Shown: positions 4,866 to 18,878 of the stretch, in pieces
How the letters are laid out: each line of letters starts with the position of its first letter
Position numbering within the stretch: position 1 is the first letter of the stretch
Origin: Trochalopteron elliotii
Taxonomy: Eukaryota; Chordata; Aves; Passeriformes; Leiothrichidae
Reading direction: 5' to 3'
Length of the DNA stretch: 64,000 nt
Assembly (NCBI GenBank): GCA_024734555.1
Contig: JANPWX010000054.1
Span: forward strand, 9,927,619 to 9,991,618
The notes under the pieces: model-generated
Database searches by the model: none
Told to the model about the DNA's origin: nothing
The model's input: the letters and a program-made list of their open reading frames with translations, nothing else
Position numbers and translations under genes: made by a program

Positions 4866-7633
4866 TCATCTTAGCTTGGTCACTTTCTTGATCCAGGGTA
4901 CGAATTTGCTGACCTTTGTGTACACACCGGGCGAATCCTTCCGACCACAGCCATAGCCCCAGGAAGTGATGCCCAAAATGATCCAGCGTCCATTTGGTCT
5001 CTGACACATGAGTGGCCCTCCACTGTCACCCTGACAGCTGTCCACCCTTTTATCTTCAGAGAGGTTCCCAGCACAAATCATGCGGTTGGTGAACTTCCGC
5101 CCGTAACGCGCCTCACAGTCTTCCCGTGGGAGAAGGGGCACCACCCCCTGCAGCAGAGTTCTGGAATAGGACTTCCCTGGAAAAAAACAGACCACCCAGA
5201 CTGATTCACGTACAGGCAACAGTAGTGACCTGGTGCAACAGTGCTCCCTCCCAAAACCTACACTTATACATTTCATGGCAAGTCTGCAGTACAGAAATAG
5301 GCTGAGCTCAGCACCTCTGAGCCACAAGAACTTCAGAAAACAGTGATGCCAAGCCAGACCACAAAAATAGAGCTGTAAGAGCAAAGATGTGGGGAAGAGG
5401 GTTGTAGAAAAATGTTAGATCAAAGGATGAGTCTTACTCTTGGTTCTGTCAGCAAGTAACTTGAACCTTGTTCAATTTATCTCACCTCTCCAAATCTCCA
5501 CTTTCTCCTCAGTAAAGCAAGGACAGTGTTTTCTCAAGAGAATAAATGCAGTAGTATCTGTTAAGTGCTCAATCCTCAGAGAAGATGTTTCAATCCTTAG
5601 AAGATGTTTCAGAGGCATTCAAACATTATTCAAAGGGAATTCACTTCATCTTTGGCCAGACTTGAGTCTATTTGATCAAATCTCTTTATTACCCCAGGGT
5701 TGCTCAGAACATAAGGCTAATGTGCTATATTAGAGTATGACCTTTCTGTGCCCAAGGTTTATGTAAGTTCACAAGGTAGTAGGTAACTGCTCCTCATTGA
5801 GAAAGCTGGGTTTGGTGCGTGGGAAGGATTCTAGCCACTAAGCTCCAGTACAGCTTAAGATAGTTACATGGCTAAGTTGTTCCTTGATCCACCCCAAACA
5901 TCCTGAAGTGACACGTGCAACTGGCACAACTGACTCCAAAGGCAAATACTTGCAATTCAAAAGCTGCAGCAATAGCTAGAGAAACAGCTGAGAAGGACGG
6001 GCAGGTCCAAAATCAACAGATGAGCTCCTGAGGCTTTTGGCAGAAAGTCTTTCTAAACATAGGGCTTTTCTCCAGTCATAGCAGCCCCAGAAAGGCCTCC
6101 ATGCTCTGTTTTACTTAGGAAGCTTCACAGCAATATGCTCAAAGAGGACAGGTCCAGGCTGTCTTGAACCCAGGGCAGAAACCAGACTCAGAGTCCATCT
6201 GTCCTTGCAGAAATACACAGGGAAATTAAGCAAGGTAATCCAAGAGAGATTTCTCTCTAAGGGCTCCTTCTACCTCTAAGCCTTCACTTCACTATGACAG
6301 TATCATGAGGAAGGCAGGTCATGGAAACATGGGGGCCTCCCACGGGCTCAGTATAGCAGTTCTGCACAGGCTGCTCCCTTAGGAGTCTTCTGTGGGCTAA
6401 CACGTGTAGAAATGAGAAGAAAGAGAGGACTGTGGGCACATGGCAGCATTGGTCTCTCCCACAGCTTCAGAGGGATGCTACTGAGCAGACTCAATGAGCC
6501 TCAAAATCAGATGAAAACACAATAGCACAAAACCCACCTCATCTCCCCATTCCTTAGCACCATGCGCTGGCACAGACAATGGGAGCAGTGAGAACACAGC
6601 TTTGAGTTGACATAAATTAATGGCCCACATAGGCTTCTGAAGGCAGAATTCCTCACCTCTCTTGCCTCTCAAACACCCACCACTCACCTGTGTCTCCCCA
6701 GCCAGAGATGATGCAGGCTTGCCTGTTGATGTCTTGCCTCTCTCTCCTGTCAGGCAGGCAGACAGGCAGAACGTGGTGATTGAAGGAGAGACAGTGCCCT
6801 TCTCTGCCCCGCATCCGCACCAGGGCGATGTCATTGTCATTGCTGCCAGCCCAGTAGTTCCTGTGGAGGACAATCCGCTCCACAGGCAGCTCCCTCTCAA
6901 ACTCATCCTTCACGCCTGTGTGGTAATCGCCCACCCGCAGGAGGTAGCGCCGCACATCAACACCAAACCTGGAGAAAAACAGACTCACGATCTCAATACT
7001 CCTACTAAGAGGAAAGCAGACTCACACAAGCCTCAGTTGCTATGAGACTGAACCACCTCCTTACACCACAGTGGTAAAACAGTTCCAGCTGCAGGACTGT
7101 GGGACCTCTTTAGCAGATATGATCGTGCCAGCTGTTGCAGATGTGGTGTCCCAAATCACTGTCTACCATGCACGGGACTTTTTTTCCTATAAAAATGATT
7201 ATTATAGTTGCAACAGGCTTCTGAACTGACCCATTCACAGTTCCTTAAAGCATTTAAAATGCCAAAACGTTGGTTCCCTTTACACAGTAAAGCCTCAAAG
7301 TTAAGAGGCCAGGTGTAAGCAGTGAAGAAAAAAGCAAGTCTATACTGAGTCATCCCCATAAGCACTCCAAAGATCACACACATCATAACCTGAAGGTCTT
7401 GGTTTAAAAGCATTGCTCGTGTGGCTCCACTAGGCTAGGAGGATAAACTTGTATGAGGTTATCTTGTCCATCATTGAGTATCCCTTGGGGCTCACCACTC
7501 CCAAACACACCTTTTGAAGCAGTGGGCAGCAGTCACCACCCAGCAGCTGCTGATCAGTGTTGCTCCACACAGCAGACGAGTATCTCGACGAAAACCCTTC
7601 AGCCGCAGTGAGGCCTGCCATGGCCAACTGCCT
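4866..7633 (-). other. Protease-domain exons of the neurotrypsin-like gene
   Basis: Exon 7633-7511 encodes the start of the mature protease (WPWQ motif) and the TAAHC motif with catalytic His620. Exon 6968-6688 carries NDNDIALVR with Asp670 and the SGWGDTG turn. Exon 5176-4866 carries [10 protein letters not shown] with S1-pocket Asp763 and catalytic Ser769, then SWGYGCG and the terminal helix ending in KVTKLR. The exon phases (2, 2, 1) match across all junctions and no stop or frameshift interrupts the domain, so it should be enzymatically competent if expressed. Confidence 0.93.

Positions 7634-18878: not shown

What the first reader, a model, noticed from the sequence alone, without database searches (positions are those of the whole stretch)
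4866..18878. A full-length neurotrypsin paralogue beside SEC24C, a probable 2R duplicate of PRSS12 absent from the human SEC24C locus
Seen: 15 in-frame exons encode signal, kringle, 4 SRCR and an intact protease. Known to me: human PRSS12 sits on 4q26 with SEC24D and NDST3, and 10q22 with SEC24C, FUT11, CHCHD1 and NDST2 is its paralogous block but carries no such gene. Inference: this is the sister copy of PRSS12, kept in birds (perhaps other non-mammals) and lost or moved in the lineage to humans. Its protease and SRCR sequences look too different from PRSS12 as I remember it to be the orthologue. If so, birds have two neurotrypsin-class proteases, and single-gene assumptions about agrin cleavage need revisiting there.
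Basis: partly seen in the sequence, partly recalled or inferred. Interest (0 to 1): 0.88.

Follow-up and report, generated by a model that had tools for sequence, protein, structure and literature searches.

The report
Second neurotrypsin gene beside SEC24C
This vertebrate genome, probably a bird's, carries two intact-looking copies of the synaptic protease gene neurotrypsin, one in each of two anciently duplicated chromosome blocks; the copy examined here is the extra one, which a 2010 study had already reported as duplicated in birds and lost in mammals.

Summary
On the minus strand, 13 GT-AG exons with matching phases (window 15443-4866) encode a kringle, four SRCR domains, a furin-type activation site and a trypsin domain with its catalytic residues. 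The 5' end is uncertain: the 15-exon model has rivals. That gene is 84% identical to human PRSS12 (sequence recalled); the window gene is about 60% identical to each. NDST, neurotrypsin, SEC24 and MYOZ genes run in the same order and direction on both contigs. A third contig, C87, has NDST and MYOZ but no neurotrypsin match. This is the pattern of an ancient block duplication, most simply 2R. It is not new: Quesada et al. [quoted passage not shown] The chromosome 6 gene is annotated NTL in chicken. I found no printed SEC24C/SEC24D block argument. Agrin cleavage is untested.

The parts
18807..18878 (-). exon 1 (possible): start codon and signal-peptide-like stretch, 24 residues; rival first exon at 18594-18402
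   Evidence: open frame, hydrophobic stretch, G at -3 and +4, donor GAG|GTAAGA score 6.2; rivals; no homologue
16670..16715 (-). exon 2 (possible): short linker, 15 residues
   Evidence: only candidate over my splice, phase and frame thresholds, which are not sensitive
15207..15443 (-). exon 3: kringle domain
13814..13937 (-). exon 4: SRCR1, first half (18 bases shorter than in the C119 gene)
13297..13472 (-). exon 5: SRCR1, second half
12823..12970 (-). exon 6: SRCR2, first half
11796..11974 (-). exon 7: SRCR2, second half
11259..11400 (-). exon 8: SRCR3, first half
10080..10282 (-). exon 9: SRCR3, second half
8963..9104 (-). exon 10: SRCR4, first half
   Evidence: SRCR4 matches PDB 6h8m, named Neurotrypsin (171 bits)
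8510..8715 (-). exon 11: SRCR4, second half
7878..7956 (-). exon 12: heavy-chain cysteine and activation site RRKKR/IIGG
7511..7633 (-). exon 13: protease, catalytic His (TAAHC)
6688..6968 (-). exon 14: protease, catalytic Asp (NDNDIALV)
4866..5176 (-). exon 15: protease, S1-pocket Asp and catalytic Ser ([10 protein letters not shown]), stop codon
24822..25055 (-). CHCHD1 exon region (neighbour; bounds are those of the open frame)
   Evidence: CHCHD1/mS37 chains, E 2.4e-11
35660..38189 (-). fucosyltransferase gene, probably FUT11 (neighbour; bounds approximate)
   Evidence: best hit FUT9, 68 bits; FUT10 and FUT11 not separated by a tool
43283..61787 (-). SEC24C (neighbour; bounds approximate, from exon-like open frames)
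   Evidence: Sec24C 634 bits, Sec24D 474 bits

Best explanation
This is an intact-looking paralogue of neurotrypsin (PRSS12), very probably the gene annotated NTL in chicken. It is the copy kept in the SEC24C block after an ancient block duplication, most simply the two whole-genome duplications of early vertebrates; PRSS12 is the copy in the SEC24D block. By its anatomy it encodes a secreted zymogen. A furin-type protease should cut after RRKKR, the heavy chain (kringle and four SRCR) should stay disulphide-linked to the light chain, and the trypsin-like light chain should cut after Arg or Lys (Asp in the S1 pocket) in an extracellular substrate chosen partly by the kringle and SRCR domains. 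Shown: gene structure from the kringle on, domains, active-site residues, a second gene in the genome, duplicated blocks. Inferred: secretion, activation, 2R date, identity with NTL. Not shown: the substrate; agrin is a guess from PRSS12.
For: Open 13-exon frame with kringle, four SRCR and trypsin. Second gene on C119, 12 exons, all 12 in the same phase as here and 7 of 12 of equal length. C119-human (recalled) 84.2%, window to either about 60%. Of 699 ungapped columns in the three-way alignment, 194 have only C119=human, 27 only window=C119, 21 only window=human, so the window gene leans to neither. From SRCR1 to the stop, 36 alignment columns hold cysteine in all three and none in only one or two. 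C46: NDST(+) 9835002-9844633, window gene(-) 9932484-9946496, SEC24C(-), MYOZ(+) 10054869-10066609. C119: NDST(+) 483061-489408, PRSS12(-) 519199-543024, SEC24D(-) 586767-614958, MYOZ(+) 740916-748743; three C119 SEC24 exons match Sec24D at 297 bits and Sec24C at 222. [quoted passage not shown] PMC2865498 states duplication before the bird-mammal split and loss in mammals (passages).
Against: No fish, shark, lamprey or monotreme sequence was reachable, so 2R rests on the blocks. SRCR1 of the window gene has lost residues and is only 43-47% identical to the other two. SRCR3 scored slightly higher against human SRCR2 (329) than SRCR3 (313), and the domain tree does not place it firmly. The kringle exon of the C119 gene was not found. 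The 5' exons of the window gene are unsettled, so a signal peptide is not established.
Confidence: 0.9

Rival explanations
1. The window gene is simply the orthologue of PRSS12, moved to the SEC24C block, and the genome has no other.
For: Same domain order as PRSS12 and a matching exon pattern.
Against: A second, far more human-like gene lies beside SEC24D on C119.
Confidence: 0.01
2. A later, sauropsid- or bird-only duplicate of PRSS12 that evolved fast and landed in the SEC24C block.
For: Long branch and a degenerate SRCR1. No outgroup older than mammals was available.
Against: Nearly equal distance to C119 and to recalled human (60.2 and 59.6%), with 27 residues shared only with C119 against 21 only with human. 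Landing by chance in the slot and orientation that mirror PRSS12 between NDST and SEC24 is unlikely.
Confidence: 0.05
3. A decaying gene or pseudogene with no protease activity.
For: Shortened SRCR1; weak donors; unsettled 5' end.
Against: No stop or frameshift in 783 codons, all 36 shared cysteine columns kept, catalytic His, Asp, Ser and S1 Asp kept. A neurotrypsin gene is annotated on zebra finch chromosome 6 and as NTL in chicken.
Confidence: 0.03
4. An assembly artefact: a falsely duplicated copy of PRSS12, as was reported for a 3 kb zebra finch scaffold.
For: Such an artefact of neurotrypsin is published (PMC9516828, passages).
Against: The two copies here differ at 40% of aligned residues and sit in contigs of 11.3 and 1.4 Mb with different neighbours. 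The published artefact was a copy of the chromosome 6 gene itself, which that paper calls the original.
Confidence: 0.005

Closest known systems
NTL, chicken GRCg7w; LOC100229828 (neurotrypsin), zebra finch chromosome 6
   Same: A neurotrypsin gene on zebra finch chromosome 6, annotated NTL in chicken (PMC9516828); that SEC24C is also on avian chromosome 6 and that NTL stands for neurotrypsin-like is my recall
PRSS12 (neurotrypsin, motopsin)
   Same: Kringle (human, recalled), four SRCR, trypsin domain, furin-type site, exon phases, convergent NDST neighbour, SEC24 neighbour on the same strand
   Different: About 60% identical against 84% between C119 and recalled human; kringle 42% and SRCR1 41% identical to recalled human; no proline-rich N-terminal segment in the model
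CD163 (M130) and other tandem SRCR proteins
   Same: SRCR domains; top of the PDB list by the sum of domains
   Different: Recalled: no kringle or protease. SRCR4 matches the single neurotrypsin domain 6h8m at 171 bits; the best single CD163 domain in the alignments printed scored 84 bits
Plasma kallikrein, urokinase, plasminogen
   Same: Trypsin-like light chain; some have kringles (recalled)
   Different: Different domain plan; in a five-row protease tree the window gene joins the two PRSS12 rows (93/96; outgroups and human recalled)

Membership tests
neurotrypsin class | one kringle, three or four SRCR and a trypsin domain in one chain | tested here: met
neurotrypsin class | catalytic His, Asp, Ser and Asp in the S1 pocket | tested here: met
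   aligned motifs; residue roles are recalled
neurotrypsin class | furin-type activation site before IIGG and a heavy-chain cysteine | tested here: met
   [18 protein letters not shown] aligned to SVCGLRLLHRRQKR/IIGG; cleavage not shown
neurotrypsin class | SRCR domains match neurotrypsin SRCR domains one to one | tested here: inconclusive
   SRCR2 and SRCR4 clear, SRCR1 by score, SRCR3 ambiguous
neurotrypsin class | secreted: signal peptide | tested here: inconclusive
   several possible first exons; no predictor run
neurotrypsin class | cleaves agrin | not testable with these tools
   needs an assay; the PRSS12 role is described in PMC4202714 (passages)
PRSS12 orthologue | closest gene in this genome to human PRSS12 | tested here: not met
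   the C119 gene is closer, 84.2% against 59.6% (recalled human)
PRSS12 orthologue | linked to SEC24D and NDST3 | tested here: not met
   linked to SEC24C and to another NDST copy than the one on C119
2R ohnologue of PRSS12 | sits in the matching slot of a duplicated block | tested here: met
   NDST, SEC24 and MYOZ duplicated in the same order and direction
2R ohnologue of PRSS12 | present in fish, shark or other early-branching vertebrates | not tested
2R ohnologue of PRSS12 | lost in mammals | not tested
   published statement only, data not shown (PMC2865498)

The most novel reading that the evidence does not exclude
Birds, and perhaps most non-mammalian vertebrates, keep a 2R ohnologue of PRSS12 as a second active extracellular neurotrypsin that shares or divides agrin processing, or works on a different synaptic or matrix substrate. 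Mammals would then be the exception with one gene, and the mouse knockout and human mutation phenotypes would describe only half of the ancestral vertebrate system.
Probability: 0.35. Interest if true: 0.6.

Novelty: already known. Interest (0 to 1): 0.3.

Why it matters
Neurotrypsin is linked to intellectual disability in people and, in mice, to agrin-dependent filopodia and spine formation (PMC2865498 and PMC4202714, passages). A second intact-looking copy bears on any use of birds to study this protease and on whether a mammalian knockout phenotype can be carried over. The block evidence turns a one-line remark of 2010 (data not shown) into something that can be checked: the slot between ZSWIM8 and CHCHD1 in any vertebrate genome tells whether the copy was kept or lost.

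Tried and rejected
Rejected: orthologue that moved (C119 gene found); assembly artefact (40% divergence, different neighbours); pseudogene (open frame, cysteines and catalytic residues kept). Led nowhere: relatives in viral contigs and genome contigs, none found; Rfam at gathering threshold, no match in the window; a kringle exon for the C119 gene was not found in C119:513001-583000, which holds 5685 N, 4985 of them in one run at 562992-567976; two tries to make the PDB tool print the 6h8m alignment showed only CD163 alignments, so I give bit scores, not identity. PRSS12 with SEC24C gave one paper, on type 1 diabetes hub genes and seen as a listing only; PRSS12 with SEC24D and chicken gave none. 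Absence of a printed block argument is claimed only for those searches in that open-access library.

Trees: the protease tree does not resolve the order within the three neurotrypsins. The SRCR tree has 102 columns, and the program warns of long branches, above all window SRCR1. C119 and human pair in SRCR1 (82/77), SRCR3 (100/99) and SRCR4 (92/85); SRCR2 is unresolved; in none does the window domain pair with C119.

Full report
What is there. On the minus strand, window 15443 to 4866, thirteen exons join with AG/GT splice sites and matching phases into 783 open codons (the first, split codon was read with a placeholder base). Pfam reports one Kringle, SRCR in four stretches and one Trypsin domain, all over cut-off. 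Each SRCR domain is split between two exons. The activation exon reads [18 protein letters not shown], and the protease keeps [13 protein letters not shown] and [10 protein letters not shown]. But four other ATG-to-donor stretches of the right phase can be spliced straight onto the kringle exon, one of them (18594-18402) with a good hydrophobic start, and my splice thresholds would have missed some sites of the 13-exon model itself. I trust exons 3 to 15 strongly; the 5' end is open.

Neighbours. Exon-like frames at 43-62 kb match human Sec24C at 634 bits and Sec24D at 474 bits, so the neighbour is SEC24C. CHCHD1 is confirmed. Below the window's low end, exons at about 9886000-9918400 of contig C46 match ZSWIM8 in PDB 9rwz (388 bits), and an NDST gene follows.

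The decisive test. The genome (1.04 Gb, 2215 contigs) could be searched from then on, with many busy answers in between. The window is C46:9927619-9991618. SRCR exons also appear on C119:527998-543004. SEC24C exons find a second set of seven weaker matches on C119:586767-614958 (52-76% identity); three of those exons match Sec24D at 297 bits and Sec24C at 222. I fetched 70 kb of C119 and assembled twelve exons, 543024 to 519199, minus strand, from SRCR1 to the stop; all twelve have the same phase as in the window gene and seven of twelve the same length. The kringle exon was not found; a run of 4985 N lies upstream. A protease-domain search of the whole genome listed 82 matches. Besides the window gene only the C119 gene stands out (72% and 76% identity in two exons, 51% in a match that overruns the third). 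The other matches were 25 to 62% identical, those above 39% being short pieces of at most about 70 residues. So this assembly holds two neurotrypsin-class genes as far as that search, which scores only its best candidates, can tell.

Which is PRSS12? Of 699 ungapped columns in the three-way alignment, 393 are the same in all, 194 shared only by C119 and human, 27 only by window and C119, 21 only by window and human, and 64 differ in all. Thirty-six columns hold cysteine in all three, and no column holds it in only one or two. The window gene thus left before the bird-mammal split, unless it evolved fast in an unusually even way. In a tree of the four SRCR domains of the three proteins, C119 pairs with human in SRCR1, SRCR3 and SRCR4, SRCR2 is unresolved, and the window domain never pairs with C119. 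The window SRCR1 is degenerate, with a 5-residue gap in its first loop, and SRCR3 is placed poorly.

The duplicated block. On C46 the order is NDST(+) 9835002-9844633, ZSWIM8(-), window gene(-), CHCHD1(-), fucosyltransferase(-), SEC24C(-), MYOZ(+) 10054869-10066609. On C119 it is NDST(+) 483061-489408, PRSS12(-), SEC24D(-), MYOZ(+) 740916-748743. Four families keep order and direction. C87 has NDST(+) and MYOZ(+) too, but none of the 58 SRCR matches listed and none of the 82 protease matches listed lies there. In one short exon the C119 and C156 NDST copies agree at 54 of 56 residues and the other pairs at 41-44 of 54-58; in the other exon all pairs are close, 56-60 of 63-64. This fits NDST3 and NDST4 on C119 and C156, as in the published local duplication (PMC4359090, passages); which NDST lies on C46 and C87 is inferred. 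That paper also has NDST3 facing PRSS12 from human to zebrafish, as on C119. Block duplication in early vertebrates is the simplest reading; the 2R date itself is inference.

What is known. Quesada et al. 2010 (PMC2865498; [quoted passage not shown] A 2022 paper (PMC9516828; passages seen) places the original zebra finch neurotrypsin gene LOC100229828 on chromosome 6 and says it is annotated NTL in chicken GRCg7w; it corrects a false extra copy on a 3 kb scaffold. It does not mention PRSS12 by that symbol. The symbol PRSS12 appears in chicken RNA-seq papers (PMC7563548, PMC5310915; passages), which fits two named genes but does not prove it. I found no paper that makes the SEC24C/SEC24D block argument, within an open-access library.

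Mechanism. By analogy to PRSS12, and from the residues kept, the product should be a secreted zymogen cut by a furin-type enzyme, with a disulphide-linked two-chain form and Arg/Lys specificity. The kringle and SRCR1, which have changed most (42% and 41% identical to recalled human), are where substrate choice may differ. Whether agrin is a substrate cannot be told from sequence.

Verdict. It is not new: both the gene and the duplication-and-loss idea are in print.

Noticed in passing
window 25451-25550 and 38208-38584: Two runs of N, in GC-rich stretches next to the 5' sides of the CHCHD1 and fucosyltransferase genes; first exons there may be incomplete in this assembly.
   Followed up: no
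G000:C119:562992-567976: A 4985-base gap upstream of the C119 PRSS12 gene, whose kringle exon was not found in the fetched sequence.
   Followed up: partly
G000:C2048:15391-17547 and C2050:15425-17503: Two contigs with SRCR matches of equal or similar score at nearly the same positions: perhaps two haplotypes or a false duplication.
   Followed up: no
G000:C1667:291901-300730, C492:1717231-1723184, C431:642225-661069: Clusters of mostly whole SRCR domains read in one frame each, as in CD163/WC1-like or DMBT1-like genes (recalled).
   Followed up: no
window 13937-13814: SRCR1 of this gene lacks about five residues in its first loop compared with PRSS12 and is its least conserved SRCR domain.
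   Followed up: partly
G000:C87:573797-616946: A third stretch with NDST and MYOZ but no neurotrypsin match, possibly the NDST1/MYOZ3 member of the set.
   Followed up: partly
G000:C46:9521954-9525662: Another trypsin-like protease on the same contig, about 0.4 Mb away; by recalled human linkage it could be PLAU (urokinase).
   Followed up: no
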